Below, in pieces: positions 38,213 through 54,854 of a stretch of 64,000 nucleotides of DNA. Source of the stretch: Flavobacterium lindanitolerans. GTDB lineage: Bacteria; Bacteroidota; Bacteroidia; Flavobacteriales; Flavobacteriaceae. The notes under the pieces are model-generated. The model was not told the origin of the DNA. It made no database searches and was given only the letters and a program-made list of their open reading frames with translations. Positions within the stretch are counted from its first letter, which is position 1, and each line of letters starts with the position of its first letter. Position numbers and translations under genes: made by a program. The DNA lies in contig NZ_PJND01000008.1 of the NCBI RefSeq assembly GCF_002846575.1, forward strand, positions 496,001 to 560,000, given 5' to 3'.

Positions 38213-40144
38213 TTACATGGCTGTGATGATAAATTCGCTTCTTCTGTTCTGCTGGTGTTCCTGTTCTGTACATTCAACACCATCTGCACATTTATTAACT
38301 AACTGGGTTTCGCCATAGCCTCTACCCGTGATTCTTTCTTTGGCAACTCCATCCTGAACCATCCAGTCGATGGTAGATTTTGCCCTGCGGTCAGAAAGTT
38401 TCTGGTTGTATTTATGAGTCTGGCGGCTGTCCGTATGCGAACGGACATCAACTTTCATATTCGGATACTGTTTCATCACGTCAACAATTTTAGCCAAATC
38501 AATAGCTGCATCCGGACGGATATTCCACTTATCAAGGTCAAAGTAAATAATCTTGATGCCGAATGTTTTGGCCAAATCGGTTCCAACCGTAATCTGCTTC
38601 ACCGGTTTATCCAATTCGATAGAAAGGTCTGTTTCTCCGGATTCTTTCGGGATAATGGCTTTTAGTTCGTTTGGCGTATAATCTTTGCTTTCTGCTTTTA
38701 CATAATACACATTCCCGCATTCTACATCAAAGCTGTATTTTCCTTCGTGGTCGGCATAGATGGTTTTGATAACCTTAAATGAAGCATCAGCCAACGTTAC
38801 CCTTGCATTGGCAATAGGAAGTCCGGTTTCTTTATCCGTAATCGTTCCTGCCAGTAATTGCTCGCATTTCATTTGTCTTGTTTCCTGGAATTTGTAGATG
38901 TCATCATATCCTTTACCTCCATCCCTGTTCGAAGAGAAAAATCCGAATCGGGTTTTGGTATCAATCATGAAAGCAAAATCATCTTTTGGCCCGTTAACGG
39001 GAGCTCCAACGTTTTTGATTTCACCATAACTTCCGTCTTTATTAATCTGGGTTACAAAAACATCCAAACCTCCTAATCCAAGTTGTCCGTCTGAAGCGAA
39101 ATACAATTCATTTTCATCTGTAACATATGGAAAAGTTTCACGGCCTTCTGTATTGACTTGTTTCCCTAAGTTTTCCGGAGTTCCAAAACTACCATCAGCG
39201 TTAATTGCCACTTTAAACAAATCCGACTGACCTAAAGTTCCCGGCATGTCTGATGCAAAGTATAAGGTCTTTTCGTCCGGACTCAAAGCAGGGTGTGCCG
39301 TACTGTAATTGTCGCTTGTAAAAGGCAATTCCGTTATGTTTACCCATTTGCCATTTTCAAGAGTACCTTTGTAGATTTTCAATAACGTCGCTTTGTCGCT
39401 GTTCTTTCCTCTTTTCCCTTTGTTATAGTTATTTCTGGTGAAGTAGACTGTTTTTCCATCTTTGGTAAAAACAGGCGTGGCTTCATTGAATTTGCTGTTC
39501 AGGGAAGTGTTGAATTGTTCCGGCTCCAACATAGAACCATCCGAACTGATTTCAGAGGCATACAATTTCGTAAACGATTGGTTGGTCCACTGGTGCTTTC
39601 TGTTGAAAAGACCTCCGGTATCTCTGGCAGAAGTAAAAACAAGTTTATTGCCAAAAAAAGCGGTTCCGTAATCAGAATATTCTGAGTTGATATTGATATT
39701 TTCAACCTTGTATCGCCCAGAATTGGCTTTTATTTCCTCCAGATAATCTTTATGTTTGGTGTACAGCTGCGCTCTTAAATCGGCCGCATTCTTTTGGTTA
39801 AACTGCGCCAGCATTTGATTCGCCTTTTCATAATCGCCAACCGATTTAAGGGTTTGCGAATAACGGTAATAGTATTCCGCATCAACCGGCTGGTTCATTG
39901 CAAAAAGTTCCTCATACCATTTGTTGGCTTTGTCTAATTCTGCATTGAAATAGTAAGCATTTCCCAGCTTTTGGAAGAGATCAACAGATTTGTATCCTTT
40001 CTCTGCTACCCTTTCATACGTCTTGATTGCATCGACATAGGCATATTTCTCATACTGCTTGTCGGCAGCTGCAAGTTTGGCTTCCTGTGCCTGGGCAGTC
40101 AGTAAAGAAAAGACTGCCAGGGCTGTATATAATTGTTTTTTCAT
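38213..40144 (-). CDS. OmpA-family protein with TPR, beta-propeller and CNA-B/carboxypeptidase-like domains
   Basis: 643 residues. Signal peptide to about residue 19 (LLTAQAQ), TPR-like helices (20-130), a PD40/WD40-type propeller (~160-410, with repeated DGKTVYFTRN and DEKTLYFASD), a carboxypeptidase-regulatory-like beta domain (~430-500) and an OmpA peptidoglycan-binding domain (~525-643, VRSHTDSRQTHKYNQKLSDRR). This is the order seen in the T9SS component PorE and its many paralogues. As the last gene of an adhesin-SprF-OmpA unit, it probably anchors the SprF/adhesin assembly to peptidoglycan. It starts 11 bp after the SprF-like gene. Confidence 0.9.
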   Translation of the reverse strand: MKKQLYTALAVFSLLTAQAQEAKLAAADKQYEKYAYVDAIKTYERVAEKGYKSVDLFQKLGNAYYFNAELDKANKWYEELFAMNQPVDAEYYYRYSQTLKSVGDYEKANQMLAQFNQKNAADLRAQLYTKHKDYLEEIKANSGRYKVENININSEYSDYGTAFFGNKLVFTSARDTGGLFNRKHQWTNQSFTKLYASEISSDGSMLEPEQFNTSLNSKFNEATPVFTKDGKTVYFTRNNYNKGKRGKNSDKATLLKIYKGTLENGKWVNITELPFTSDNYSTAHPALSPDEKTLYFASDMPGTLGQSDLFKVAINADGSFGTPENLGKQVNTEGRETFPYVTDENELYFASDGQLGLGGLDVFVTQINKDGSYGEIKNVGAPVNGPKDDFAFMIDTKTRFGFFSSNRDGGKGYDDIYKFQETRQMKCEQLLAGTITDKETGLPIANARVTLADASFKVIKTIYADHEGKYSFDVECGNVYYVKAESKDYTPNELKAIIPKESGETDLSIELDKPVKQITVGTDLAKTFGIKIIYFDLDKWNIRPDAAIDLAKIVDVMKQYPNMKVDVRSHTDSRQTHKYNQKLSDRRAKSTIDWMVQDGVAKERITGRGYGETQLVNKCADGVECTEQEHQQNRRSEFIITAM

Positions 40145-40155
40145 AGTTGCTGCTT

Positions 40156-41067
40156 TTAGAAGAATCTTGGAGAGGTTACTTTGTTGAATCTGTTGAATAA
40201 TTCGAAACGAAGGAAAACCTCATGCGAACCTGAATTGTAGTTGGCAAGCTTTGTCGTTTCTAAATCATATCCGTAGCCTACAAATAGTCCTTCTGTGATT
40301 TGGAATCCTGCCATAGCACTCACGGCTGCATCCCATCTCCAGGCTACTCCAAGCGTCAGCTTATCATTGAAAAGAAAGTTTCCTGAGACGTCAGCCTGAA
40401 GCGGCGCTCCATTTACAGCTTTCATCAAAAAGGCCGGCTTGAATTTGATGCTTGGACTCAAATCGAAAACATAACCTCCAATCAGATAAAAATTCATCCT
40501 TTCCTGATTTACAGATACTGAATTGTCATCGTATCTGTGGGTTTCAAAAAAGTTTGGTACCGAAAGTCCCAAATACATCTTATCGGAATGAAAATAAGCT
40601 CCTGCCCCAATGTTTGGCGTGAAGTTATTATTCAGATTCATTAATCGCGGATCTCCCTGATCTGCCGGATTCAGCTTATTAACATCCAAATTGAACATAT
40701 TTGCTGTAGCCTTAATTCCAAAAGACAGCTTAAATGTTTCTGAAGTCTTAACAGTATAGGAAATATCTGCAGAGATTGCATTTTCATCTGTAGGTCCTAT
40801 CCTGTCGTTTACAAATGATAATCCCATTCCTATATTAGTGCCGTTAATTGGCGTGTTGATAGAAACGGTATTGGTCACCGGTGCTCCGTCCAAACCAACC
40901 CATTGCGTTCTGTGAAGTCCGAAAACGCTTAGTACGCCTCGCGAACCTGCATAAGCAGGGTTGATATTGATGGTATTGTACATATACTGCGTGTATTGCG
41001 CATCTTGTTGTGCAAATGCGCTTGCACCTACAAGAATCCAGACGAAAAATATGATTATTTTTTTCAT
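40156..41067 (-). CDS. PorP/SprF-family outer-membrane protein
   Basis: 303 residues. Signal peptide to about residue 19 (VGASAFAQ), followed by the hallmark start QDAQYTQYMYNTININPAYAGSRG, then a beta-barrel pattern. In F. johnsoniae SprF is needed to export and attach the motility adhesin SprB, and SprF-like proteins generally accompany type B cargo. Here it lies 51 bp downstream of a giant CHU_C adhesin, so it is very likely that protein's dedicated partner. Whether it also serves the two type B proteins at 26-34 kb is open. Confidence 0.93.
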   Translation of the reverse strand: MKKIIIFFVWILVGASAFAQQDAQYTQYMYNTININPAYAGSRGVLSVFGLHRTQWVGLDGAPVTNTVSINTPINGTNIGMGLSFVNDRIGPTDENAISADISYTVKTSETFKLSFGIKATANMFNLDVNKLNPADQGDPRLMNLNNNFTPNIGAGAYFHSDKMYLGLSVPNFFETHRYDDNSVSVNQERMNFYLIGGYVFDLSPSIKFKPAFLMKAVNGAPLQADVSGNFLFNDKLTLGVAWRWDAAVSAMAGFQITEGLFVGYGYDLETTKLANYNSGSHEVFLRFELFNRFNKVTSPRFF

Positions 41068-41118: not shown

Positions 41119-44100
41119 TTATCTGCTTAAGTATAAATAGCCGCTCTTTTCTCTTACAGTACCATCTTGTTTTTTGTATTTCAAGATGTAGAAATAAGTA
41201 CCATCAGGTAATCCTTCTGATTTGTTTACTGTAACCCTTCCTTCAGAATATCCTCTAAAGGCTTTGTCATTGTTGTTATAGCCACTTGTTTCGTAAACTA
41301 CAACACCCCAGCGGTTGAAAATTTCTACTTTGTTGTCTGGATAGCATCCTAATCCTCCTATGTATAAAAATTCGTTGCTGCCATCATTATTTGGAGTAAC
41401 TACATTGAATACATTGATGGTACATCCGTCAATTTCAACAATCGTTGGATTGTTTCCTGCATTATCTGTATGGTCAGAAGCATCTGTAACTTCTACATCC
41501 AGCGGACTGTTTCCTGTAACGAATGCCTGGTTCGACACACTTCCTGCATTGATATCGGCTTGTGTAATGGTATAGATAGCCGTAAATGTAGTGCTGTCAC
41601 TTTCTCCAACAGCAAGAGTTATAGGACCTCCACTTACAACAACTCCCGGTAGCGGATCTGTAACAGTCACATCGCTCAGGCTTACGTTTCCTGTATTGGT
41701 TACCGTAAAGTTATAAGTGATGGTTTCTCCTACTTCTGCGATTCCATTGTTATTGCTATCGTTGAAAGTTGCTGTCTTAATCAGCGCAATCGCCGGATTT
41801 TGCTCAATAATCGTAACTGTACAATCCGGACAGGTTGGTTCGTATAACGGATCGTTCGGGTCTAACGGAGATGGGTCCTGCGACTCCACATCAATTGGGT
41901 TTCCAGACGGATCTGTACCTTCTGCCAACGCCAGGTTATAAACTGCTCCTAATTCAATATCAGCTTGGGATATGGTGTAAGTTGCCGTGAACGTTGTTGA
42001 ATCAGTAGCTTGTGGTGCTAAAGAAGCAATAGGTCCGCCTGAAACTGCAACTATAGGGTCGGTCACAGAAATATTCGTAACAGTTACGTTTCCTGTATTT
42101 CTAACCGTAAAGCTATATTGGATAACATCTCCGGCATTTACGATTCCGTCATTGTTCGCATCCTGATAAACTCCTTCTTTGAATAATTCAAACTTAGGAT
42201 TTTGAGGTAGTACAGTTACAGTTGGATCGTCATTTCCTGGCAATGTAGGGTCATTACTATCTGAGTCATCTGTAATTGGTGTTCCTACTACCGGAGTAGC
42301 AGTTACTAATGCCTGGTTGTTTACAACTCCTGCGTCAATATCAGCTTGTGTAAACGTATAGACTGCAGTAAATGTAGTCGAATCAGTAGCACCTGCAGCT
42401 AAAGTTGCAAGAGGTCCGCCATTTACAGTCACCAAAGGATCGGATACCGTAATGTTTGTCAATTCCATTGTTCCGGTATTGATTACCGTGAAATTATAAG
42501 TAATGGTTTCCCCTACCTGTGCAAATCCGTCACCGTTTGCATCATTGAAGGTTCCTTGCTTGATAATTTCAACACCTGGCACCTGAACCAAAATTGTTAC
42601 TATAGCCGTATCACAGTTGGTTGGGTTCAATATTTCACAAATGCTGTATTCTAACGTATATGTTCCTGCTGGTGTTCCAGGCGCAACAGTTATTGTTCCG
42701 TCAGGATTTAATGTCAGAGGAGCATCTGCATTTACAGTTGTTAGAGTTACTTCTGATGGAATAACCGCTACACCATTCAGCGTATCGTTAGTAAATACGT
42801 TTCCGGCATTTACCATTCCTTCAGTTCCGTTTACAATCGTACCGGTCAAGTCATCATTTACCGCATCGATTGGAGCAGGATTAACAACTATTGTCACTGT
42901 AGCTGATTCACAATTTGTAGGATTTAATATCTCACATAACTGGTATATAATAGTATACGTTCCCGCAGGTGTCTGTGGGTCTACGCTCACTGTTCCAGTT
43001 GCCGGATCCAATTCCACACCCGGGTTAGTCGATGGAGTCGTTACCGTGATGGTTACCTGTGATGGGATTACCGGAACACCGTTTAGGGTATCATTATCCA
43101 ATACGTTCACTACGTCAGGATTACCTTCATATCCGTTAACCGGAGTTGGATTATCATTTACCGCATCGATTGGTGCCTCTTCCACTACTACCGTTACGGT
43201 TGCAGAATCACAGTTGGTCGGGTTCAAAATCTCACACAATTGGTATACGATGGTGTAGGTTCCCGCAGGAGTCTGTGGGTCTACGCTTACCGTTCCCGTT
43301 GCAGGATCCAGTTCCACGCCAGGGTTAGCCGATGGGGTCGTTACCGTAATCGTTACCTGTGACGGGATAACCGGAACACCGTTTAGGGTATCGTTATCCA
43401 GTACGTTTACTACATCGGTATTGCCCTCGTATCCGTTAACCGGAGCCGGGTTGTCGTTCACCGCATCGATTGGTGCTTCTTCTACTACTATAGTTACGGT
43501 TGCAGAATCGCAATTCGTCGGGTTCAAAATCTCACACAATTGGTATACGATGGTGTAGGTTCCAGCAGGAGTCTGTGGGTCTACGCTTACCGTTCCTGTT
43601 GCAGGATCCAATTCAACGCCAGGGTTAGCCGATGGGGTCGTTACCGTGATGGTTACCTGAGATGGGATTACCGGAACACCGTTTAGGGTATCGTTATCCA
43701 ATACGTTTACTACGTCTGTGTTTCCTTCATACCCGTTAACCGGAGCCGGGTTATCGTTAACCGCATCGATTGGTGCCTCTTCCACTACTACCGTTACGGT
43801 TGCAGAATCGCAGTTCGTCGGGTTCAAAATCTCGCACAGTTGGTATACGATGGTATAGGTTCCCGCAGGAGTCTGTGGGTCTACGCTTACCGTTCCTGTT
43901 GCAGGATCCAATTCAACGCCAGGGTTGGCCGATGGAGTCGTTACCGTGATGGTTACCTGAGATGGGATTACCGGAACACCGTTTAATGTGTCGTTATCCA
44001 ATACGTTTACTACGTCTGTGTTTCCTTCGTATCCGTTAACCGGAGCCGGGTTATCGTTAACCGCATCGATTGGTGCCTCTTCCACTACTACCGTTACGGT

Positions 44101-47100
44101 TGCAGAATCGCAGTTGGTCGGGTTCAAAATCTCGCATAATTGGTATACGATAGTATAGGTTCCCGCAGGAGTCTGTGGGTCTACGCTTACCGTTCCTGTT
44201 GCAGGATTCAATTCCACGCCAGGGTTGGCCGATGGGGTTGTTACCGTGATGGTTACCTGTGACGGGATTACCGGAACACCGTTTAATGTGTCGTTATCCA
44301 ATACGTTCACCACGTCCGTATTTCCTTCGTATCCGTTAACCGGAGCCGGGTTATCGTTAACCGCATCGATTGGTGCCTCTTCCACTACTACCGTTACGGT
44401 TGCAGAATCACAGTTGGTCGGGTTCAAAATCTCGCATAATTGGTATACGATAGTATAGGTTCCCGCAGGAGTCTGTGGGTCTACGCTTACCGTTCCCGTT
44501 GCAGGATCCAATTCCACGCCCGGATTAGCCGATGGGGTTGTTACCGTGATGGTTACCTGAGATGGGATTACCGGAACACCGTTTAATGTGTCGTTATCCA
44601 ATACGTTCACCACGTCCGTATTTCCTTCGTATCCGTTAACCGGAGCCGGGTTATCATTAACCGCATCGATTGGTGCCTCTTCCACTACTACCGTTACGGT
44701 TGCAGAATCACAGTTGGTCGGGTTTAGTATCTCGCACAGTTGGTATACGATAGTGTAGGTTCCCGCAGGTGTCTGTGGGTCTACGCTCACCGTTCCCGTT
44801 GCAGGATCCAGTTCCACGCCCGGATTAGTCGATGGGGTTGTTACCGTAATTACAACTTCTGATGGTACTACCGGAACACCGTTTAGGGTATCGTTATCCA
44901 GTACGTTTACTACATCTGGATTTCCTTCGTATCCGTTAACCGGTGTTGGAGTATCGTTATTGGCTACGATAGGTGCTGCGGCTACTACAACTGTTACGGT
45001 TGCAGTATCGCAGTTGGTTGGGTTTAATATTTCGCAAATTGTATAATCAAAAGTATAGTTTCCTGCCGGTGTGTCCGCTAAAACATCAACTGCTCCTGTA
45101 GTGGTATTGAATGTTATTCCTGCCGGTACACTTCCCGGTACAACACTAACTGTTACTTCACCTGGAATTACTGCTACTCCATTTAAAGTATCGTTTGCTA
45201 AAACATTTGGAATTGCATTTCCTCCTACATAACCATTTACCGGAGTGGCGTTTGTATCATTAACCGCTACAATTGGCGCAGCAGTTACGACAATAGTTAC
45301 TGTAGCTGAATCGCAATTTGTTGGGTTTAATATTTCACATAGCTGGTACACTATCGTGTAGGTTCCCGCAGGAGTTTCCGGATCTACGCTTACCGTTCCT
45401 GTTGCCGGGTCAAGCTCTACGCCTGGGTTTGTTGACGGAGTAGTTACCGTAATTACAACTTCTGATGGTACTACCGGAACACCATTTAAAGTATCATTAG
45501 TCAAAACATTTACTACATCAGTATCTCCTTCATATCCGTTAACCGGAGTTGGATTATCATTATTCGCTACGATTGGTGCCGCCGCTACGTTTACAGTGAC
45601 CTGTGCAGTGTCGCAGTTCGTAGGGTTTAGCACCTCACAGATAGTATAATCGAAAGTATACGTTCCTGCAGGAGTTCCCGCATTTACGCTTACTGCTCCC
45701 GTAGATGTGTTGAACGACAATCCTGCCGGAACAGCTCCAGGAGCAACCGAAACGGTTACCGAGCCTGCCGTGATGGCTGCACCATTCAGGGTATCGTTTG
45801 CCAATACGTTTGGTATAGCCGTACCTCCTGCCATACCGTTAACCGGAGTCGCAGTAGTATCGTTATTCGCTACGATTGGCGCTGCCGCTACGTTTACAGT
45901 GACTTGTGCAGTGTCACAGTTCGCAGGGTTTAATACCTCGCAGATGGTATAGTCGAAAGTATACGTTCCTGCAGGAGTTCCCGCATTTACGCTTACCGCT
46001 CCCGTAGAAGTGTTGAATGACAGTCCTGCCGGAACAGCTCCCGGTGCGGTTGTAATCGTTACTGTACCTGCCGTAATTGGCGAGCCATTCAACGTGTCGT
46101 TTGCCAATACGTTTGGTATAGCCGTACCTCCTGCCATACCGTTAACCGGAGTCGCAGTAGTGTCGTTATTCGCTACGATTGGAGCCGCCGCTACGTTTAC
46201 AGTGACTTGTGCAGTGTCACAGTTCGCAGGGTTTAGCACCTCGCAGATGGTATAGTCGAAAGTATACGTTCCTACAGGAGTTCCCGCATTTACGCTTACC
46301 GCTCCGGTTGAAGTATTGAAAGACAGTCCTGTCGGAACAGCTCCGGGAGCAGTAGAAATTGTTACTGTACCTGCCGTGATTGGCGAACCGTTCAACGTGT
46401 CGTTTGATACTACGTTAGCAATAGCCGTACCGCCCGCAATACCGTTAACCGGAGTCGCAGTATTGTCGTTATTCGCTACGATTGGAGCCGCCGCTACGTT
46501 TACAGTGACTTGTGCAGTGTCACAGTTCGCAGGGTTTAGCACCTCGCAGATGGTATAGTCGAAAGTATACGTTCCTGCAGGAGTTCCCGCATTTACGCTT
46601 ACCGCTCCCGTAGAAGTATTGAAAGACAGTCCTGCCGGAACAGCTCCCGGTGCGGTTGTAATCGTTACCGTACCTGCTGTGATGGCTGCGCCGTTCAGTG
46701 TGTCATTTGTTAATACGTTTGGTATAGCCGTACCGCCCGCGATACCGTTAACCGGAGTCGCAGTAGTGTCGTTATTCGCTACGATTGGAGCCGCCGCTAC
46801 GTTTACAGTGACTTGTGCAGTGTCACAGTTCGTAGGGTTTAGCACCTCGCAGATGGTATAGTCGAAAGTATACGTTCCTGCAGGAGTTCCCGCATTTACG
46901 CTTACCGCTCCGGTTGAAGTATTGAACGACAATCCTGCCGGAACAGCTCCGGGAGCAGTAGAAATTGTTACTGTACCAGCCGTGATTGGCGAACCGTTCA
47001 ACGTGTCGTTTGATACTACGTTGGCAATAGCCTGGCCACCTGCCAAACCATTTACAGGAGTTGCAGTAGCATCGTTATTGGCTACGATAACATTCACAGG

Positions 47101-49959
47101 AGTTGTTGTTGTTGAATCTGTGTTATCTGTTGTATCAGGGTCATTTTCATCGCCATCAACAGTAGCAGTATTCGTATGGTTTCCGGTAGCATTGACAGTA
47201 GCGGTAATTACTAAAGTCTGGATTGCTCCATTAGCTAAGTTCCCTACTGTCCATAGTCCTGTTGCGGAAGCATAGGATTGTCCTGCTGTATGTGAAACAT
47301 ACGTATATCCTGAAGGAAGCTGGTCTGTTACCAATACATTGGTTGCATTACCCGGTCCGTTATTGGTTACAACCAAAGTAAATTCTACCTGTGAGCCAAC
47401 ATTTGGCGTTGCATTGTTTACAGTCTTGGCAATTTCCAAATTCGCATCTGCATCCGGAGCAACCGTTACGTCATCTGTATTATCACCCGGAACCGGATCA
47501 TTTTCTGTACCTGTTACGGTAGCTACGTTTGTATAGTTTCCTGTAGCATTTACCGTTGCAGTAACAGTCATTGTTCGTGTAACTCCGTTAGCTATGTTTC
47601 CTATTGTCCAGATTCCCGTACCACTGTTGTAAGTACCGGCAGTAACAGTTGAAGAAACATAAGTAAAACCTGTTGGCAACTGGTCTGTAACTACTACTCC
47701 TGTAGCAGCATTTGGCCCGTTGTTCGTCACAGCAATTGTAAAAGTTACCGATTGCCCGATTGTAGGCACTGTAACATTTGCCGTTTTCACAATTGTAAGG
47801 TCGGCTATAGCGGCAACATTCAGGTTGTTGTATTTAATATTATTACAGTTTTCAACTGCTGTTCCGTTTCTACATTCCAAATGTGGGTCGGTTGGTGGTG
47901 TTGTGCCAGGATGAGTGGCATCAATATCTGTTACGTCAGCCGGGCGTATAATTGAAGCTTCCACATTTAAAGGTTGTCCTGCTAAAGATGAACCTACAGT
48001 TCCTGTAATCGTAAATACGATTTCTGAACCGTTTGTCATATTCAGGTCAGCTATATAGTTGCCCGAAACTGGGTCTACAGCTCCGCTCACTACTACAACA
48101 GTTCCCTGGCTATTTACATAAGTAACTCCCGTTATTGTAAATCCGGCCGGAACAACAAAGGCAAAGCCTGAACCTGTCACGTCGCTTGGCCCATTATTTT
48201 TTACTACTACATTATAGTTGACTTGTTGTCCAACAGCTACAGTGGTAGTTGAAGGCGTAACGCTTACTACTTCCAAATCAGCCGCTGCAACAATAATATC
48301 GAGTGTTTTTATAATTACTTCTCCGGGAACAAAACTCCAGGTATCTAATGATTTTTCGTTACCAAAACTTGAACCTCCATCTCCATTATTTCCTGTTCCA
48401 GAACTACCCATCGTGTATCTTCCCCATTTATGTCCGTTGCTGTTACTTGAAATACCAGCTATTCCGGAAGCAGTAGGGTTTGATTGTGTATTTGCGTTTC
48501 CGCCCTGAACATTTGAATCATCCCAATATACCAAATCTCTATTTGGTGTATAAAGGTTATAACTGCTGTTCAGTTGCTCAATAATAATACCTCCCGGATT
48601 AATTTCCATATCTATAAAAGGGAAATGGACTTCGGCACCAAACAGCTGTACTCTGATTTCTCCAATATTGGTATTGGCCGGCAGCGTATTCCCTGCCCCG
48701 TCACGTCCGTCCCAAAAAACAGTATTGGTCCCCATATTACAGTTTCCTGTTATGGTTCTGGTTGGGAAAGCTCCCAGTATTTCAATTCTGTATGTTCCTG
48801 AAAGGTTAGAATCGAAACCAATATAAGCTCCCTTATTACCGGAACGGTTTGGAGTTCCCTCTGCACCTGTATAAGTGATGTTTGTAGCCGTAGGCGTAAT
48901 CACAGTGTTTTTTAACCAGGTTGTTACGCTCAAAGAAGTACTTACTGCCTGAGTTGCACTTGAAGGCAAATCGGCAGCAGGCGTTGTATAAAATATTTTA
49001 TGCGTAACGTTATTAGCATCGTCCTGACTTCTAGGGTCATGAACTCTAAAATCAGCACTTGAAGGGCTTGAAAGGTTCAAACTCTTATAGGAAGGGTTTC
49101 CTGTAGCATCCAAAAAACCTTTATTATTTACAAAAAAAGTAAACCCAACTCCATTCGAGCCGTTATTGGTTACTCTATAGGCAATTCCGTCACGTGTTAA
49201 AACAGTAAATTTACCATAAAAGGCCTTATTTGCCTGAAATGAAGTTCCCTGTATGTGCAGGTTAAACACATTTGAATACACACGTCCGGAAATCCAATTG
49301 GAATTAGCTGCATTTCTTACGGAAATATCCCAGGCAGCTATCAATTCTGTATTGTTTCCTTGCGTCCAGTTAGCATCAGCAGCAACATCCACAACACTTG
49401 GTGTAGAGCTGCTGGTTTCAGAACCCGAAGGTAAAAATTCTACTTTCCAGATTCCCGCCTGTCCGGCACCAACTGTGACCGAATAAGGTGTGTATCGGTC
49501 ACCTCCGGCTCCTTGTCCTGGATATTGCGGTCCGGCTAATTCACCGGCACGGTTAGGAATTTGACCTGTTGTATTCGCAGCAGATAAGAATTGAGTCCCG
49601 TCTGGTGCTATCAACCTGATACGTCCATTACCAATGTTTTGGGCGCTAGATCCTGTCGCAATAGTTTCTCCCACCTGGGCATAGACATAATGCGTTCCTA
49701 AAGTTTTAAAAGGCCAGGAATTGATGGTGGTTCCTCCGGCCGTATAGCTATTACTATACAGGAAAGCACGGTTACCCACTACTCCGGATGGATAAAGGTC
49801 CTTACTTCCATCTGCATAAGCTGCATTCCAGAAGCTGGCCATCGTCAGAAGGAAAACAAGCATTAAGATATTTTTTACTCTTAATGCAGCATTCCCAAAC
49901 ATGACATTTACCTGTCGATAGGGCAAGAATCTGCCTTGACAACTGTAGTTTTTGTTCAT
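41119..49959 (-). CDS. Giant T9SS type B adhesin with DUF11 and Ig-like repeats (SprB-like role)
   Basis: 2946 residues. Start MNKNYSCQG is chosen since it precedes a long signal peptide (cleaved near AAYADG, ~50) and upstream codons lie in the promoter region. Domains: unique N-terminal region to ~550; three DUF11 modules (~555-955, e.g. FTIAVTNNGPNAATGVVVTD); 15 Ig-like units of 100-101 residues (~957-2450), each with VNDTLNG-like and ILNPTNCD motifs; three related modules (NTGNVTVTNISVTDP type, ~2460-2830); a CHU_C sorting domain (VVTPNNDGSNEFLYIGGLGC, VEIFNRWGVVVYE). It heads a unit with SprF-like and OmpA proteins. Size, repeats and context suggest a mobile or fixed surface adhesin; it is not shown to be SprB itself. 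Confidence 0.93.
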   Translation of the reverse strand: MNKNYSCQGRFLPYRQVNVMFGNAALRVKNILMLVFLLTMASFWNAAYADGSKDLYPSGVVGNRAFLYSNSYTAGGTTINSWPFKTLGTHYVYAQVGETIATGSSAQNIGNGRIRLIAPDGTQFLSAANTTGQIPNRAGELAGPQYPGQGAGGDRYTPYSVTVGAGQAGIWKVEFLPSGSETSSSTPSVVDVAADANWTQGNNTELIAAWDISVRNAANSNWISGRVYSNVFNLHIQGTSFQANKAFYGKFTVLTRDGIAYRVTNNGSNGVGFTFFVNNKGFLDATGNPSYKSLNLSSPSSADFRVHDPRSQDDANNVTHKIFYTTPAADLPSSATQAVSTSLSVTTWLKNTVITPTATNITYTGAEGTPNRSGNKGAYIGFDSNLSGTYRIEILGAFPTRTITGNCNMGTNTVFWDGRDGAGNTLPANTNIGEIRVQLFGAEVHFPFIDMEINPGGIIIEQLNSSYNLYTPNRDLVYWDDSNVQGGNANTQSNPTASGIAGISSNSNGHKWGRYTMGSSGTGNNGDGGSSFGNEKSLDTWSFVPGEVIIKTLDIIVAAADLEVVSVTPSTTTVAVGQQVNYNVVVKNNGPSDVTGSGFAFVVPAGFTITGVTYVNSQGTVVVVSGAVDPVSGNYIADLNMTNGSEIVFTITGTVGSSLAGQPLNVEASIIRPADVTDIDATHPGTTPPTDPHLECRNGTAVENCNNIKYNNLNVAAIADLTIVKTANVTVPTIGQSVTFTIAVTNNGPNAATGVVVTDQLPTGFTYVSSTVTAGTYNSGTGIWTIGNIANGVTRTMTVTATVNATGNYTNVATVTGTENDPVPGDNTDDVTVAPDADANLEIAKTVNNATPNVGSQVEFTLVVTNNGPGNATNVLVTDQLPSGYTYVSHTAGQSYASATGLWTVGNLANGAIQTLVITATVNATGNHTNTATVDGDENDPDTTDNTDSTTTTPVNVIVANNDATATPVNGLAGGQAIANVVSNDTLNGSPITAGTVTISTAPGAVPAGLSFNTSTGAVSVNAGTPAGTYTFDYTICEVLNPTNCDTAQVTVNVAAAPIVANNDTTATPVNGIAGGTAIPNVLTNDTLNGAAITAGTVTITTAPGAVPAGLSFNTSTGAVSVNAGTPAGTYTFDYTICEVLNPANCDTAQVTVNVAAAPIVANNDNTATPVNGIAGGTAIANVVSNDTLNGSPITAGTVTISTAPGAVPTGLSFNTSTGAVSVNAGTPVGTYTFDYTICEVLNPANCDTAQVTVNVAAAPIVANNDTTATPVNGMAGGTAIPNVLANDTLNGSPITAGTVTITTAPGAVPAGLSFNTSTGAVSVNAGTPAGTYTFDYTICEVLNPANCDTAQVTVNVAAAPIVANNDTTATPVNGMAGGTAIPNVLANDTLNGAAITAGSVTVSVAPGAVPAGLSFNTSTGAVSVNAGTPAGTYTFDYTICEVLNPTNCDTAQVTVNVAAAPIVANNDNPTPVNGYEGDTDVVNVLTNDTLNGVPVVPSEVVITVTTPSTNPGVELDPATGTVSVDPETPAGTYTIVYQLCEILNPTNCDSATVTIVVTAAPIVAVNDTNATPVNGYVGGNAIPNVLANDTLNGVAVIPGEVTVSVVPGSVPAGITFNTTTGAVDVLADTPAGNYTFDYTICEILNPTNCDTATVTVVVAAAPIVANNDTPTPVNGYEGNPDVVNVLDNDTLNGVPVVPSEVVITVTTPSTNPGVELDPATGTVSVDPQTPAGTYTIVYQLCEILNPTNCDSATVTVVVEEAPIDAVNDNPAPVNGYEGNTDVVNVLDNDTLNGVPVIPSQVTITVTTPSANPGVELDPATGTVSVDPQTPAGTYTIVYQLCEILNPTNCDSATVTVVVEEAPIDAVNDNPAPVNGYEGNTDVVNVLDNDTLNGVPVIPSQVTITVTTPSANPGVELNPATGTVSVDPQTPAGTYTIVYQLCEILNPTNCDSATVTVVVEEAPIDAVNDNPAPVNGYEGNTDVVNVLDNDTLNGVPVIPSQVTITVTTPSANPGVELDPATGTVSVDPQTPAGTYTIVYQLCEILNPTNCDSATVTVVVEEAPIDAVNDNPAPVNGYEGNTDVVNVLDNDTLNGVPVIPSQVTITVTTPSANPGVELDPATGTVSVDPQTPAGTYTIVYQLCEILNPTNCDSATVTIVVEEAPIDAVNDNPAPVNGYEGNTDVVNVLDNDTLNGVPVIPSQVTITVTTPSANPGVELDPATGTVSVDPQTPAGTYTIVYQLCEILNPTNCDSATVTVVVEEAPIDAVNDNPTPVNGYEGNPDVVNVLDNDTLNGVPVIPSQVTITVTTPSTNPGVELDPATGTVSVDPQTPAGTYTIIYQLCEILNPTNCESATVTIVVNPAPIDAVNDDLTGTIVNGTEGMVNAGNVFTNDTLNGVAVIPSEVTLTTVNADAPLTLNPDGTITVAPGTPAGTYTLEYSICEILNPTNCDTAIVTILVQVPGVEIIKQGTFNDANGDGFAQVGETITYNFTVINTGTMELTNITVSDPLVTVNGGPLATLAAGATDSTTFTAVYTFTQADIDAGVVNNQALVTATPVVGTPITDDSDSNDPTLPGNDDPTVTVLPQNPKFELFKEGVYQDANNDGIVNAGDVIQYSFTVRNTGNVTVTNISVTDPIVAVSGGPIASLAPQATDSTTFTATYTISQADIELGAVYNLALAEGTDPSGNPIDVESQDPSPLDPNDPLYEPTCPDCTVTIIEQNPAIALIKTATFNDSNNNGIAEVGETITYNFTVTNTGNVSLSDVTVTDPLPGVVVSGGPITLAVGESDSTTFTAIYTITQADINAGSVSNQAFVTGNSPLDVEVTDASDHTDNAGNNPTIVEIDGCTINVFNVVTPNNDGSNEFLYIGGLGCYPDNKVEIFNRWGVVVYETSGYNNNDKAFRGYSEGRVTVNKSEGLPDGTYFYILKYKKQDGTVREKSGYLYLSR
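42600..47090 (-). repeat. Fifteen tandem 300/303-bp coding repeats, two interleaved subtypes
   Basis: Subtype A (303 bp, TAPGAVPAGLSFNTSTGAVS) occurs six times and subtype B (300 bp, PGVELDPATGTVSVDPQTPA) nine times, in the order A5-B-A-B8. The B units between about 43140 and 44940 are nearly identical, period exactly 300 bp. Confidence 0.92.
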
Positions 49960-50176
49960 CTTTATGGTTTTAATTGTTTTAATTGAAAATCGGGGAAAAC
50001 AGTTTTTTGGTGGTGGCAAACGGTTTATTAAGAGCGATTTAAAGAATAAAGTTTTTACACATACGCAGATTGGTTTGATTAATAAATGGTTAGACACAAC
50101 TATCTGGCTGACGGACAACCCGATTGTGCAAATTTCTTTACTATACTGCGTAGGCCGTGTAGACAATGCATACAGC

Positions 50177-50200
50177 ATTTGTAGAATAAATTCTACAAAT
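50177..50200. promoter_or_regulatory. TTGTAGAAT dyad upstream of the giant adhesin operon
   Basis: TTTGTAGAAT-AA-ATTCTACAAA, with one more matching base pair on each side, so 11-bp arms. It lies between the channel gene's stop and the adhesin start, 218 bp before the latter. A -7-like GAAATTTG (minus strand) follows near 50129-50136. Confidence 0.75.
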
Positions 50201-50226
50201 TTGGCTTATGATTTCAGGTTGCGGAT

Positions 50227-50958
50227 TTAGTTAATTGGCCTGATGAAGGTGATGTAGTAGATAATTCCTGCCAGACCGGCTCCGGCAAAAGGTGACAACC
50301 ATAAAGACAACGCTTCTATTGCCTCATGATTTCCATAGATTAGCAATTCTGCAGCAGTAACGGCCGGATTTAGCGGATAATTGGTAATAGACATATTGAC
50401 AAAATTGGCCATAAAAACAGTTATTGCCATAATAGAAGCCACATACAACTTACTCTTTTTCAAATAGGTCAAACCCAAAAAAAGCAATAAAATAATAAAC
50501 ATCAGTACGCTTTGGCATACTGTCGATAACATTAATCCTTCCTCGTATCCCAACACTGTCGGCTTAATGAACATCCCGGAAATTGTTCCGCCTTTTTGCG
50601 AAAACAGATAAAACCCCAGAAAGGTTGCCAGAATCCCTCCTGCTACATGCATACAGGTATAAGCAATAAGTCGGTTAAAACCTATTCTGTTGGCAATAAA
50701 AAAACCAACCGAAATAGCAGGATTATAATGGGACCCTGATATAGGATAGAAAAAGAAAGTAGCCAAAAAAGTAAGGATACCTATAGAGAGGCATAGTAGC
50801 AGCTGATTGAAAAAATTATCTTGAAAAAATGGAATAAGCATTCCCGCTACAACAAAAAAAGTCAATAAAAATGTCCCTGCAAATTCTGCAAGAATGCTCA
50901 CTAATTGCACTTTAGCGAACATCTTTTTATGCCCGGAGGCAAATGTTGGTAAACTCAT
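50227..50958 (-). CDS. Aquaporin/MIP-family channel, atypical
   Basis: 243 residues with six membrane helices. Two NPA boxes are present: SGSHYNPAISVG (N79) and NYPLNPAVTAAE (N197). In water and glycerol channels the second box is followed by Arg, part of the selectivity filter; here it is Val (V200). The pore is therefore not a standard water or glycerol filter and the substrate is uncertain. The protein sits between the adhesin operon and a divergent sensor kinase, with TTGTAGAAT dyads on both sides. Membership of the family is confident; function is not. Confidence 0.82.
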   Translation of the reverse strand: MSLPTFASGHKKMFAKVQLVSILAEFAGTFLLTFFVVAGMLIPFFQDNFFNQLLLCLSIGILTFLATFFFYPISGSHYNPAISVGFFIANRIGFNRLIAYTCMHVAGGILATFLGFYLFSQKGGTISGMFIKPTVLGYEEGLMLSTVCQSVLMFIILLLFLGLTYLKKSKLYVASIMAITVFMANFVNMSITNYPLNPAVTAAELLIYGNHEAIEALSLWLSPFAGAGLAGIIYYITFIRPIN

Positions 50959-51100
50959 AAAAATTTAGTGGAATAATAGCAAGGGAAAGAAATCTTTCCC
51001 TTGCATCAAGTAATCAAAACCTATAAAAATTAATCGGGTTAAATCATTTACTAAATTCCATATTGACATTGGAAAAAATTGTGGCTCATATAAATACTTA

Positions 51101-51120
51101 TTGTAGAATTAATTCTACAA
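51101..51120. promoter_or_regulatory. TTGTAGAAT dyad between channel and sensor kinase
   Basis: TTGTAGAATTAATTCTACAA, a perfect 20-bp palindrome, 100 bp before the kinase start codon and 143 bp before the channel gene. A -7-like GAACTTTG (51144-51151) follows on the kinase side. It matches the dyad at 50177-50200 in both arms. Confidence 0.75.
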
Positions 51121-51219
51121 CACCATTCGGCATTTTTCATGCTGAACTTTGTAATATTGAGCAATGGATTTCCCTTATCAGATAGCGCTGATTAAGCCAC
51201 TGATTTCCATCTGCTAAAA

Positions 51220-54219
51220 ATGCCATTTTCTAAACCACTATACCTGTTGTTTGCTGTGTTTTTCAGCATCTCTACCCTTTTTTCACAACAAGAAAACCGG
51301 GAGTATGACATCATATGGCATTCTGCAGATGATAACAGCCTTCCACAAAACAGTGTCAAGTCAATCATTCAGGACAAATACGGTTTTTTATGGCTTTCAA
51401 CAGAAAACGGATTGGTGCGCTATGACGGCAGTAAGTTCAAAGTTTTCAATATTGAAAATCTAAAAGGACTGGGAACGAACAGGATAAGCTATTTCAGAGG
51501 GACAGTTTCTACCGACAGTATTTATGCGTTGAGCGACTTTACAGATCTGATACTTATAAAAAACAACAGACCTTCAATCATCCCAAAACATAAAATCCCC
51601 GAATCTTTTCGCCTGACCAACCATCTTCACAAAGGCAAAAGAGTTTATGCTCATAAGATTTACAAAACAGACAATAGCTATTTCAGCCTGGAAAACGGGA
51701 AACTGGCAGCCTACACCAAAAACAATCAGAAACTTTGGGAAATAGAGTATGAGTATGACCCGGACAATACGGAATTCTTCTTAGTCAACAACGCTCTTTA
51801 TTCTCATAAAAACGGAAAGTTTGTACGGTTCGAAAACGGGAAAGCCTACCTCGCCACTATTGAAGGATTACCAACTACGGGATTTACAGTATTTCCAAAT
51901 ACGGTGGCACAACAAACCTTCATTACTTTTAACAATACGGTATATCTGCTGGAAAAGAACCAGGATAAATTAATCCTGAAAGTCCTGCTAAAGGATTTTA
52001 ATATTTCTAAAAACAATATTATTTCGTATTACTATGATGTCCCGAATGACATCTTGTATTTGGGAAGCAGTACCGACGGACTGCTGATTGTCAAGAAAAA
52101 GAAATTCAACAGCATTATTGGCAATAATAAAAACGGAGTATATTATGCCCAGATTCCTCATGGAAATGATAGTTTTCTCTCTACAACCGGAGAAATATTC
52201 AGCTCTTCCGGCGTGCAGAAACAACGTTTCTTCACCAAGGAGAATGACAATTACATCCTCCTCAAAGACCGTAACGGCGGCCTCTGGACCAAACAGGACA
52301 ACAGAATTTACCGACTTAATAAAAGTACCAACTTTACGACTTTCGACACCTGGTTTTTTGAAGACCGGGTCATTCTGCTTTTTGAAACACTAAAAGGAGA
52401 AATTCTGGCCGGAACAGCTACGAATGGTGCTCCCGCCGGAAAGCTTTTCAGACTGGAAGATACCGGACTATCAAAACCGAGTTTTAAACTTTATATGGTG
52501 GTTCCTTTTCATCCTACTTATATGCTTCAAATTGAAGATAACATCTTGTGGACAGGTTCGCATTTGGGCTTCCATAAAATTTATTTCCGGGAAAAAAAGG
52601 TTGAAAATATCAAGAAAATCTCCAATACTTATGTAAGGAGCATCTATATTGAAAACCCAAACGAAATATGGGTAACTACCTATGAAAAAGGTTTTTTTCT
52701 TTACAATCCGTACACCAAAAAAACAACCCATTTTCCTATTGACAAAAACAGGTATCTGCTTTCATCTCATTGCATTATTGAAGACCAGAATGGTTATTTA
52801 TGGATTTCCACAAACAAAGGGCTTTTTCAGGCTTCAAAGAAAAACCTGTTAAATTATTCTAAGGGAAAAACAGATAATGTTTACTATCAGTATTATGACA
52901 AATCAGACGGATTTTACACCAATGAATTCAACGGAGGCTGCCAGCCTTGCGGTCTGAAATTAGGAAACAATGCCCTTTCATTTCCATCAATGAGGGGCAA
53001 CATATTATTCTTTCCTGAAAAAATAAAACTGCTTCTCCCCGATAATGAAATCTATTTTCAGGAAGCCGAAGTTGACAACCGGACACAGGAAATCAGCAAT
53101 GACACCTTGCTTTTGAAAAATAATTTTGGAAGGGTAAGGCTATTTATCAACAGTCCGTATTACGGAAACCCAAATAACCTGAATATTGAAATCCGCTTAC
53201 AGGGACCTATTTCTCAAAAATGGACTTCTTTGAAAGGCGATGAGATTTCTTATACTTCACTCCCACACGGAACTTATTATCTTACAGCTCGAAAACTCAC
53301 CGGTTTTGACTCTAATTATAAATACAAAACGCTCACCATAATTATCCCGCCGGCTTTCTACCAAACTATCTGGTTCAATATCCTGATGGTTTTATGCGGT
53401 TTGACGCTTATTTTTTATACCATTAAAATGAGAATCCGCTACATCAGGAGAAAAAATGTTCTTTTGGAAAAAAAGATTGCGGAACAGACTTTCCAATTAC
53501 GCAATACCATCAGTACGTTAAGAAACACTAAAGAAAAACTAAGTGAGGAAATTATCAACCATAAGAAATTAATCCGGACGATTACGCACGACATCAAGAG
53601 TCCGCTCCGCTTTTTGGCATTAACCGGCAAGCATGCCTATCAGAACAGTAACAATATAAAAGTAGTTGAAGAAGATTTAAAGTCTATTTATACTTCTTCT
53701 TTCCAGCTTTATCATTTTGTTGACAATCTTTTGGAATACACCAAAGTGAGCAAACAGGAAAACTCTTCCGAACCTTACAGTCTTTATACTCTTGCGGAAG
53801 AAAAAACAACCATCTTTTTAAATATAGCTTCTTCTCAAAAAACAGAGATAATCAATAAAATTGACACTACTCTCGTACTATCAACCAACAAACTGCTGTT
53901 GTCAATTATTATCCATAACCTGCTCGACAATGCCATTAAAAATACCTTTAACGGCAGGATTGTGCTTACTTCCGGTAAAAGAGATGAAAATATTTTTATC
54001 CGGATAAAAGATACGGGAAAAGGGATGTCGCCCGAACTTGTAGATTTTTACAATACCTCTAAAAACAGCAAAACACAGGAAGGTGTCCGAAAAATAGGTA
54101 TGGGATTACCAATGGTGGCCGAGCTCTTAATTATCTTAAACGGCAGTATGCATATTGAAAGTACAGTCCAACTAGGAACTGAAATAACCATCTGGCTGCA
54201 GGAAGAAAAAAGCAGCTAG
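51220..54219 (+). CDS. Propeller-type sensor histidine kinase
   Basis: 999 residues. A signal peptide is followed by a large periplasmic sensor made of Reg_prop-like repeats (e.g. GFLWLSTENGLVRYDG, NGYLWISTNKGLF) and a Y_Y_Y-like beta domain before one membrane helix (~713-735) and a coiled coil. The kinase core has the H-box THDIKSP (H790), N-box HNLLDNAIKN, and glycine boxes KDTGKGM and IGMGLPM. Unlike the hybrid two-component proteins of polysaccharide loci, it has no receiver or AraC domain of its own. The partner is probably the convergent NarL-type regulator, with which it shares its last bases. The signal is unknown. Confidence 0.9.
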   Translation: MPFSKPLYLLFAVFFSISTLFSQQENREYDIIWHSADDNSLPQNSVKSIIQDKYGFLWLSTENGLVRYDGSKFKVFNIENLKGLGTNRISYFRGTVSTDSIYALSDFTDLILIKNNRPSIIPKHKIPESFRLTNHLHKGKRVYAHKIYKTDNSYFSLENGKLAAYTKNNQKLWEIEYEYDPDNTEFFLVNNALYSHKNGKFVRFENGKAYLATIEGLPTTGFTVFPNTVAQQTFITFNNTVYLLEKNQDKLILKVLLKDFNISKNNIISYYYDVPNDILYLGSSTDGLLIVKKKKFNSIIGNNKNGVYYAQIPHGNDSFLSTTGEIFSSSGVQKQRFFTKENDNYILLKDRNGGLWTKQDNRIYRLNKSTNFTTFDTWFFEDRVILLFETLKGEILAGTATNGAPAGKLFRLEDTGLSKPSFKLYMVVPFHPTYMLQIEDNILWTGSHLGFHKIYFREKKVENIKKISNTYVRSIYIENPNEIWVTTYEKGFFLYNPYTKKTTHFPIDKNRYLLSSHCIIEDQNGYLWISTNKGLFQASKKNLLNYSKGKTDNVYYQYYDKSDGFYTNEFNGGCQPCGLKLGNNALSFPSMRGNILFFPEKIKLLLPDNEIYFQEAEVDNRTQEISNDTLLLKNNFGRVRLFINSPYYGNPNNLNIEIRLQGPISQKWTSLKGDEISYTSLPHGTYYLTARKLTGFDSNYKYKTLTIIIPPAFYQTIWFNILMVLCGLTLIFYTIKMRIRYIRRKNVLLEKKIAEQTFQLRNTISTLRNTKEKLSEEIINHKKLIRTITHDIKSPLRFLALTGKHAYQNSNNIKVVEEDLKSIYTSSFQLYHFVDNLLEYTKVSKQENSSEPYSLYTLAEEKTTIFLNIASSQKTEIINKIDTTLVLSTNKLLLSIIIHNLLDNAIKNTFNGRIVLTSGKRDENIFIRIKDTGKGMSPELVDFYNTSKNSKTQEGVRKIGMGLPMVAELLIILNGSMHIESTVQLGTEITIWLQEEKSS

Positions 54220-54854
54220 TTTTCGTAAATCTTAAGGATTTCTACCAGACTGACTACATTGTTAATTCTTAACTTTTCAAAAATCCTGTTTTTGTAAGTA
54301 CTAACTGTAGTCATTTGAATATTCAACTGGTTGGCTATTTCCAGATTGCCTTCTCCCCTGGCCAAAAGTCCGGCTACTTCAATTTCACGGTCAGAAAGGC
54401 TTTCCAACGGATTGATAGGAGTTTTATGCAATACATTTTCCAGAATTTTCTCTTTGACAGTGGCGCTGATGTATTTTCCGGTTTCCATAACCGATTGTAC
54501 TGCATTGATAATCTCGCTTTCGGAACTGTGTTTGTTCAGGAAACCATTGGCACCGGCATGGATATACCGAAGGGCATATTGCTCTTCATCATAGGCAGAA
54601 AACATCAAAACTTTCAGGTCCGGATAGGACAGCCTGATTTTTTCAATCATTTTGGTACTGTTGCCTCCCGGAAGATTGATATCTAAAAATAATAAATCGG
54701 GAACACTGGTTTTTAGCAGGTTCAATACAGACGTAAAACTTTCGGCGTGCTCAACCGTAATTCCATTGAATGATTCTTTCAAAATCAATGAAATTCCGTG
54801 ACGGACTACACTGTGGTCGTCAGCCAGTAGTATTTTTTTCAACTCTGTTGCCAT
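54216..54854 (-). CDS. NarL/LuxR-family response regulator
   Basis: 212 residues. The receiver domain (1-125) has ADDHS near the start and the phosphoacceptor Asp in LLFLDINLPGG; the LuxR-type HTH (~150-205) reads LSDREIEVAGLLARGEGNLEIANQLNIQMTTVS in its conserved parts. NarL-type proteins bind short inverted repeats, so the TTGTAGAAT dyads beside the kinase are possible targets. It converges on the kinase gene and both TAG stops are formed by one CTAG. It has its own promoter, which would allow separate dosing of kinase and regulator. Confidence 0.93.
   Translation of the reverse strand: MATELKKILLADDHSVVRHGISLILKESFNGITVEHAESFTSVLNLLKTSVPDLLFLDINLPGGNSTKMIEKIRLSYPDLKVLMFSAYDEEQYALRYIHAGANGFLNKHSSESEIINAVQSVMETGKYISATVKEKILENVLHKTPINPLESLSDREIEVAGLLARGEGNLEIANQLNIQMTTVSTYKNRIFEKLRINNVVSLVEILKIYEN

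What the first reader, a model, noticed from the sequence alone, without database searches (positions are those of the whole stretch)
50177..51120. A shared TTGTAGAAT-N2-ATTCTACAA dyad links a giant adhesin, a channel and a sensor kinase
Two near-perfect palindromes with the same 9-bp arms flank the channel gene: one in front of the adhesin-SprF-OmpA unit, the other between the channel and the kinase. Long identical arms at two promoters 0.9 kb apart are unlikely by chance. The locus also encodes a NarL-type regulator, a family that binds such inverted repeats. This may be an undescribed system in which a propeller kinase senses an outside cue and sets adhesin display.
Basis: partly seen in the sequence, partly recalled or inferred. 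Interest (0 to 1): 0.75.

Follow-up and report, generated by a model that had tools for sequence, protein, structure and literature searches.

The report
Regulator sites before giant adhesin genes
Two identical DNA palindromes in this Flavobacterium genome look like docking sites for a neighbouring response regulator that controls a giant surface adhesin and a water-channel gene, and the same kind of site recurs beside this regulator in many related bacteria.

Summary
The two dyads exist and are the only good copies in the 3.7 Mb genome. The conserved unit is TGTAGAA-N4-TTCTACA. Of 80 loci of NarL-type regulator relatives, 62 carry it within 5 kb of the regulator gene; the farther 653 kb carry none. 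The regulator is the only protein family found in all 81 neighbourhoods compared. Together they give each dyad a direction. Dyad 1 faces the adhesin-SprF-OmpA unit. Dyad 2 fits the aquaporin side better than the kinase side. The composite is in 60 of 398 congeneric genomes (reversed control 0), and 58 of the 60 have the regulator. Several distal composites precede other giant adhesins. Near the regulator the targets are mixed: 8 of 66 face an adhesin-like gene and 19 a kinase operon. Most likely this is a BvgA/EvgA-like two-component activator whose targets here are an adhesin operon and an aquaporin. Binding, phosphotransfer and cue are untested. No earlier description turned up in the listed search results.

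The parts
50179..50198 (-). Dyad 1: primary operator of the adhesin promoter
   Evidence: 0 mismatches; composite matrix 41.2 bits adhesin-ward
50158..50164 (-). Third half-site (GTCTACA), 22 bp downstream of the right arm of dyad 1
50129..50136 (-). -7 box GAAATTTG of the adhesin promoter (predicted start of transcription about 50124)
   Evidence: position 62-69 from dyad start, as in 50 of 66 oriented sites with one mismatch or fewer
51101..51120 (-). Dyad 2: operator in the divergent aquaporin/kinase intergenic region, oriented to the aquaporin
   Evidence: 0 mismatches; matrix 35.4 bits aquaporin-ward, 15.1 kinase-ward
51080..51086 (-). Degenerate third half-site AGCCACA on the aquaporin side; GCCACA kept in 3 species
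51051..51058 (-). Degenerate -7 box GAATTTAG on the aquaporin side; kept in 3 species
51144..51151 (+). Candidate -7 box GAACTTTG of the kinase's own promoter; dyad 2 would then lie at about -55 to -36
   Evidence: inference from position and similarity in relatives
41119..49959 (-). Giant repetitive adhesin (2946 aa; DUF11/DUF7507 repeats, CHU_C type IX signal)
40156..41067 (-). PorP/SprF-family protein
38213..40144 (-). OmpA/PorE-like outer-membrane protein with PD40 repeats
   Evidence: below NCBI's PorE and CHU_0125 cut-offs
50227..50958 (-). Aquaporin/MIP channel
   Evidence: over the Pfam cut-off, below NCBI's MIP and AqpZ cut-offs
51220..54219 (+). Sensor kinase: Reg_prop propeller, weak Y_Y_Y, hydrophobic stretch (by eye), HATPase
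54216..54854 (-). NarL-type response regulator (receiver + GerE/LuxR HTH), proposed binder of the dyads

Best explanation
The dyads are operators of the NarL-type response regulator at 54216-54854. When phosphorylated, most likely by the convergent propeller kinase, the regulator binds TGTAGAA-N4-TTCTACA as a head-to-head dimer. Another dimer or monomer binds the third half-site 22 bp (two helical turns) nearer the promoter, next to the -33 region. This recruits sigma-A RNA polymerase to a TAnnTTTG-type -7 box. Dyad 1 switches on the adhesin-SprF-OmpA unit. Dyad 2 switches on the aquaporin and may also modulate the kinase. Shown by computation: the operator unit, its fixed spacing to the -7 box, its tie to the regulator, its position before the adhesin gene here and before giant surface-protein genes in relatives, and its absence elsewhere in this genome. 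Inferred: binding, activation rather than repression, phosphotransfer, and the outside cue.
For: Around 80 regulator relatives, 92 dyads with up to 2 mismatches lie within 5 kb of the regulator in 62 loci, and 0 in the remaining 653 kb. Two hundred shuffled half-sites give a mean of 0.94 and a maximum of 7; of spacers 0-8 only 4 works. Four of those 80 loci had helped to choose the query; without them it is 58 of 76. The regulator is the only family in all 81 neighbourhoods; the two kinase families are in 40 and 24. In 7 dyad-bearing loci no other palindrome was shared by more than one. Third half-site at offset 22: 67 hits against a mean of 1.94 per offset. -7 box at position 62: 50 of 66 oriented sites, other offsets mean 0.89; among 45 sites without a one-sided third half-site, 18 at position 62 and 12 at 61 against a mean of 1.6. 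The composite with up to 2 mismatches is in 60 of 398 genomes, control 0; 58 of the 60 have the regulator. In this genome the half-site/-7 pattern has one perfect match, at the adhesin. Distal composites precede adhesin or adhesin-SprF genes in L192, L195, L198 and L204; 7 of 23 distal sites have a first gene of at least 1000 aa against 13 of 426 background ORFs. EvgA is the closest solved relative, sharing the TVSTYK-R---EKL helix; BvgA dimers are 22 bp apart with the proximal one at -35.
Against: Of 136 regulator-bearing genomes, 78 have no composite with up to 2 mismatches. A regulator clade of 7 loci (L121, L123, L126, L128, L130, L134, L136) keeps the same recognition helix but has no good dyad. 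In three adhesin loci with a dyad (L074, L080, L110) the composite matrix score is at noise level. Of 66 oriented sites (window included), only 8 face an adhesin-like gene; 19 face a kinase(-regulator) operon, 10 another gene of 500 aa or more (five of them with PAS-kinase length and cluster), 26 a shorter gene, 3 none. Two genomes, G096 and G300, have a composite but no regulator found; one search scored only 7 candidates per genome. The aquaporin-side third half-site and -7 box are each 2 mismatches off consensus, and without the dyad such weak matches are noise: 11 in the genome against 21 in the reversed control. No expression or binding data exist here.
Confidence: 0.82

Rival explanations
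1. The dyads are operators of the same regulator, but it represses the adhesin and aquaporin, with the third half-site blocking RNA polymerase.
For: The third half-site (about -40 to -34) touches the -33 region, and a bound protein there can also block polymerase (geometry; -7 box position from the paper passage). For the kinase's own promoter the dyad would lie at about -55 to -36.
Against: The geometry matches activation by BvgA. The -7 boxes of the window promoters depart from consensus (GAAATTTG, GAATTTAG), which suggests weak promoters that need help.
Confidence: 0.12
2. Another DNA-binding protein, not the NarL-type regulator, binds the dyads, and the regulator is only a neighbour.
For: Binding was not measured; linkage alone does not prove contact. 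Two genomes have a composite without a regulator found, and one regulator clade lacks good dyads.
Against: No other family was shared by all the loci within 6 kb. 58 of 60 composite-bearing genomes have the regulator although only 136 of 398 do.
Confidence: 0.05
3. The dyads are transcription terminators or a hairpin repeat.
For: Dyad 1 lies about 28 bp past the aquaporin stop. Genome G013 has 16 scattered dyads with up to 1 mismatch, and none of the 14 in L039-L048 has both the third half-site and the -7 box.
Against: In most propeller-kinase loci the dyad lies between two divergent gene starts, with no gene end nearby. Fixed third half-site and -7 box. No run of T follows either dyad. Only two copies in this genome. 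The terminator scan lists neither dyad, but its rule of three G-C pairs could not have listed these stems.
Confidence: 0.02

Closest known systems
BvgA-BvgS of Bordetella acting on the fhaB promoter (PMC7250471, passages seen)
   Same: NarL-type regulator (recalled) acting through inverted half-sites; dimers 22 bp apart; proximal site abuts the -35 region; fhaB encodes a large surface adhesin (recalled)
   Different: Half-site sequence differs (BvgA primary site TAAGAAATTTCCTA in the passage); BvgS is a Venus-flytrap sensor (abstract start of PMC5829827), here a propeller kinase or a two-helix kinase; the secretion route here is type IX; binding is not shown here
EvgA-EvgS of E. coli
   Same: Closest solved relatives of the regulator are EvgA (5f64, 8zwn, E about 1e-19) with the same TVSTYK-R---EKL helix
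   Different: Far below NCBI's EvgA cut-off (93.8 of 251 bits), so not an EvgA orthologue by that test. EvgA's own box was recalled only; my searches for it returned nothing useful
Propeller sensors of hybrid two-component systems (4a2l, 3v9f, 3ott; Bacteroides recalled)
   Same: The kinase's sensor half is related by sequence
   Different: Here the kinase is encoded apart from its presumed regulator, which is NarL-type
PorXY-SigP control of type IX secretion (PMC4800418, PMC5005315: search listing and abstract starts only)
   Same: Two-component control linked to type IX secretion
   Different: Described as acting on secretion-component genes through an ECF sigma factor; here a different regulator type sits before a cargo adhesin gene with a sigma-A type -7 box
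Two-promoter control of remFG-sprCDBF in F. psychrophilum (PMC9723704, passages seen)
   Same: Transcriptional control of a SprB-SprF adhesin operon in Flavobacterium
   Different: There sigma-54 and an alternative-sigma motif; the held main text has no occurrence of 'palindrom' or 'response regulator'

Membership tests
NarL/FixJ-type response regulator | Receiver domain followed by GerE/LuxR helix-turn-helix | tested here: met
   Pfam Response_reg 3.8e-24 and GerE 5.7e-16
NarL/FixJ-type response regulator | Conserved acidic pocket and phospho-acceptor Asp | tested here: met
   D12 and D13 invariant in 7 aligned sequences; the Asp in FLDINLP is present in P0001 but is Glu in L052
NarL/FixJ-type response regulator | Binds inverted half-sites at its targets | not testable with these tools
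   Linkage only
EvgA (NCBIfam NF007419) | Score over the curated cut-off | tested here: not met
   93.8 bits against 251
BvgA-like operator array | Half-sites phased by 22 bp, proximal one next to the -35/-33 region | tested here: met
   67 hits at offset 22, mean 1.94 per offset; -7 box at fixed 62-69; met at sequence level only
Propeller sensor kinase (HTCS-type sensor) | Reg_prop and Y_Y_Y domains with kinase ATPase | tested here: met
   Reg_prop 4.7e-13, HATPase 1.1e-15; Y_Y_Y at 21.2 bits is below its 26.6 cut-off; PDB relatives 4a2l, 3v9f
Propeller sensor kinase (HTCS-type sensor) | HisKA phospho-acceptor domain | tested here: inconclusive
   Pfam HisKA not reported; a THDIKSPL H-box is visible and aligned with HisKA kinases
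Type IX secreted adhesin with SprF partner | CHU_C signal and downstream PorP/SprF | tested here: met
   CHU_C 2.1e-24; PorP_SprF 8.2e-94
Cognate kinase-regulator pair | Phosphotransfer from this kinase to this regulator | not testable with these tools
   Neighbours in the window and 23 relatives; no assay

The most novel reading that the evidence does not exclude
Flavobacteriaceae share one regulator-operator code that is reused for display of giant surface proteins. The regulator and its 70-bp composite promoter are kept, while sensors (propeller kinase, two-helix kinase, none) and targets (DUF11/CHU_C adhesins, collagen-like proteins, channels, further kinases) are exchanged. The geometry is that of BvgA at fhaB, in a distant regulator acting with a flavobacterial sigma-A promoter. 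New genes are recruited by acquiring the promoter, as the aquaporin seems to have been here.
Probability: 0.5. Interest if true: 0.72.

Novelty: new member of a known kind. Interest (0 to 1): 0.62.

Why it matters
In the papers seen here, the described controls of type IX secretion and of SprB-type adhesins act on the secretion machine or through sigma factors. A 70-bp promoter signature with no reversed-control match in 398 genomes lets one predict, from sequence alone, which genes this regulator family controls, and gives a direct two-site test of the regulator. It also offers a second, distant case of a BvgA-type array in front of a large adhesin.

Tried and rejected
Terminator or dispersed repeat: rejected on copy number, divergent gene starts and fixed promoter spacing; the terminator scan is uninformative for these stems. 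A genome-wide regulon read from dyads alone: rejected. Genome G013 has 16 dyads with up to 1 mismatch; of 14 in L039-L048 none has both the third half-site and the -7 box, though two have a near -7 box; those of L049-L051 have neither at the expected place. G013 has one distal composite, on C4, with no gene facing it in the ORF list. L056 first looked incomplete, but its half-site and -7 box are both present one base farther and face a NarL-type regulator gene. Kinase as the common factor: rejected. Loss of the dyad in L058: first read as a loss near the kinase; the matrix then found a 42.2-bit composite about 8.3 kb away, next to adhesin and OmpA remnants; not pursued further. Coordinated change of recognition helix and operator in the dyad-less clade: looked for, not found; the helix is the same. 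Odd Pfam matches in repetitive proteins (for example cuticle protein or LAMTOR5 in L131) are taken as low-complexity noise. EvgA box from print: not found. A fold prediction was not run because it would not bear on DNA binding.

Full report
Observation. The two palindromes are at 50179-50198 and 51101-51120, both without mismatch. Shuffled windows give 0.07 matches with up to 3 mismatches on average. In the 3.72 Mb genome the only other matches have 3 mismatches, five places, close to the reversed control of three. The adhesin start is better placed at 49959, which leaves a signal peptide-like stretch near the N-terminus (by eye); dyad 1 is then about 220 bp upstream of it.

Surroundings. Minus strand: aquaporin 50227-50958 and, downstream of dyad 1, a 2946-aa adhesin with DUF11/DUF7507 repeats and a CHU_C type IX signal, a PorP/SprF protein and an OmpA/PorE-like protein. 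Plus strand: a 999-aa propeller kinase. Convergent with it: a 212-aa NarL-type regulator whose nearest solved relatives are EvgA. The genome's other GerE-domain genes (13 more matches) have no dyad nearby: the best match within about 1.5 kb of each has 4 or more mismatches.

The dyad follows the regulator. Twenty regions were fetched from congeneric genomes because they held dyads, 11 of them from one genome, G013. Six held a regulator with 47-95% identity beside the dyad: L037, L038, L052-L055. Dyads with up to 2 mismatches: 92 within 5 kb of the regulator in 62 of 80 loci, none farther out. Two hundred shuffled half-sites of the same composition gave at most 7; other spacers from 0 to 8 gave at most 4. 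Among ORFs of 90 aa or more within 6 kb of the regulator in 81 neighbourhoods including the window, only the regulator family is in all; 40 have a 580-aa two-helix kinase and 24 the propeller kinase. Five loci of one regulator clade (L062-L065, L069) keep the dyad with neither kinase and face a gene family whose member in L062 is Ppx/GppA-like. Seven loci of another clade have no good dyad although the recognition helix is the same.

A composite promoter. A third half-site TTCTACA lies 22 bp beyond the right arm: 67 hits at offset 22 among 110 sites read in both directions, against a mean of 1.94 per offset. With 66 sites oriented by it, a TAnnTTTG box appears at position 62-69: 50 of 66 with up to one mismatch, 2 and 1 at neighbouring offsets. 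In 45 sites without a one-sided third half-site the same box peaks at 62 (18) and 61 (12), mean 1.6. TAnnTTTG is the flavobacterial sigma-A -7 box at -12 to -5 (PMC9723704, passages). This puts the dyad at about -74 to -55 and the third half-site at about -40 to -34. BvgA forms head-to-head dimers every 22 bp with the proximal one abutting -35 (PMC7250471, passages): the same geometry.

Direction in the window. Scored with a matrix that leaves out the window's own sites (its relative L057 stayed in), dyad 1 reaches 41.2 bits towards the adhesin; dyad 2 reaches 35.4 bits towards the aquaporin and 15.1 towards the kinase. The best score in 60 shuffled loci was 7.4. Without the dyad, the half-site/-7 pattern has one perfect match in the genome, at the adhesin. 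The aquaporin side is one of eight 3-mismatch matches and would not stand alone: 11 matches in all against 21 in the reversed control. The aquaporin-side elements GCCACA and GAATTTAG are kept in three species: the window, L037/L057 (F. microcysteis) and L202, which all have the gene order SprF or adhesin, adhesin, aquaporin, kinase, regulator. In 22 of 24 propeller-kinase loci taken up, a dyad lies within 300 bp of the kinase start. On its other side lies a DUF11/CHU_C-type gene, by Pfam or likeness to the window adhesin, in 9; another long ORF in 5; an AraC-type gene before a collagen-like or low-complexity gene in 4; SprF-OmpA without a dyad in 1; none of these in 5 (my sorting). In three of the nine adhesin loci (L074, L080, L110) the exact composite is not recognisable by the matrix. 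The window's two dyads therefore look like the ancestral divergent site plus a second one that came with the aquaporin (inference).

Targets beside the regulator. Of the 66 oriented sites, 8 face an adhesin-like gene (window included), 19 a kinase or kinase-regulator operon, 10 another gene of 500 aa or more, 26 a shorter gene and 3 no gene of 100 aa or more within 1.2 kb. The regulator thus often acts on its own operon, and adhesins are one class of target.

Genome-scale test. Among 150 congeneric genomes, 47 have a regulator relative at E 1e-40 or better. Dyads with up to 1 mismatch: 31 of 47 of these have one (78 sites, 16 of them in G013; control 20), against 27 of 103 of the rest (31 sites, control 29), Fisher p 5e-6. 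The composite with up to 3 mismatches is in 22 of these 150, control 0. With up to 2 mismatches it is in 60 of 398 genomes with no reversed-control match; 58 of the 60 are among the 136 regulator-bearing genomes, Fisher p 4e-29. The 78 regulator-bearing genomes without it, and the two exceptions G096 and G300, count against a strict rule; one search scored only 7 candidates per genome, up to 20.

Distal targets. Composite sites found by DNA alone, away from the regulator gene, precede a 2381-aa CHU_C adhesin with SprF and OmpA (L198), a 1720-aa DUF7507 protein cut by the contig end (L195), an 813-aa ORF followed by a 917-aa CHU_C ORF and SprF (L192) and a 3332-aa adhesin relative about 55 kb from its regulator (L204). 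L203, beside a regulator and a two-helix kinase, drives adhesin-SprF-OmpA too. Of 23 distal sites, 7 have a first gene of 1000 aa or more, against 13 of 426 background ORFs, p 4e-6. The others precede shorter or unrelated genes, or none.

Mechanism. Most likely an activator array of the NarL-type regulator on the adhesin and aquaporin promoters. Phosphorylation by the propeller kinase is inferred from gene neighbourhood. The cue is unknown. Repression with the same sites cannot be excluded.

Novelty. Response regulators with such arrays are a known kind. This regulator, its operator and its link to type IX adhesins did not appear in the listed results of six searches of the open-access library (the lists were cut at 20 of 26, 12 of 2745, 12 of 12, 10 of 72, 10 of 23 and 40 of 127). 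The half-site string with 'Flavobacteri' gave papers that, by title and abstract start, are on detection, hosts or other subjects. Subscription papers are mostly not held.

Noticed in passing
window 50979-51004: Perfect 12-bp hairpin GCAAGGGAAAGA/TCTTTCCCTTGC directly before the aquaporin start, also in L057 and begun in the stretch of L202 seen; possibly a 5' leader element or attenuator.
   Followed up: no
G013 (L039-L048): One genome has 16 dyads with up to 1 mismatch scattered over its contigs; of 14 examined none has both the third half-site and the -7 box, so they seem to be a different element with the same arms.
   Followed up: partly
L052:5459-6085 / L106: Regulator relative with Glu instead of the phospho-acceptor Asp (ILEINIS for FLDINLP), possibly always on; the dyad beside it faces a 1265-aa Calx-beta protein.
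   Followed up: no
L058:18100-20460: Remnants of an adhesin N-terminus and an OmpA C-terminus near a well-kept composite promoter about 8 kb from the regulator: a rearranged or decaying adhesin operon.
   Followed up: partly
G040, G068, G069, G141: Two regulator relatives encoded back to back in the same genome.
   Followed up: no
L077, L078, L097 downstream of the regulator: The second composite promoter leads to a PAS-HATPase kinase (L078, L097; same cluster in L077), followed in L077 by a DUF1508 protein, suggesting a chained signalling circuit in the two-helix-kinase lineage.
   Followed up: no
L092, L117, L073: Composite or dyad sites next to collagen-like proteins (Pfam Collagen in L117 and L073, collagen-flanked surface repeat in L092 and L117) as alternative surface targets.
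   Followed up: partly
L056:4062-4700 and dyad at 5030: A one-base-shifted composite faces a NarL-type regulator gene, so the spacing can vary by one base.
   Followed up: partly
G096 (L200), G300 (L222): Composite promoters in genomes where no close regulator relative was found.
   Followed up: partly
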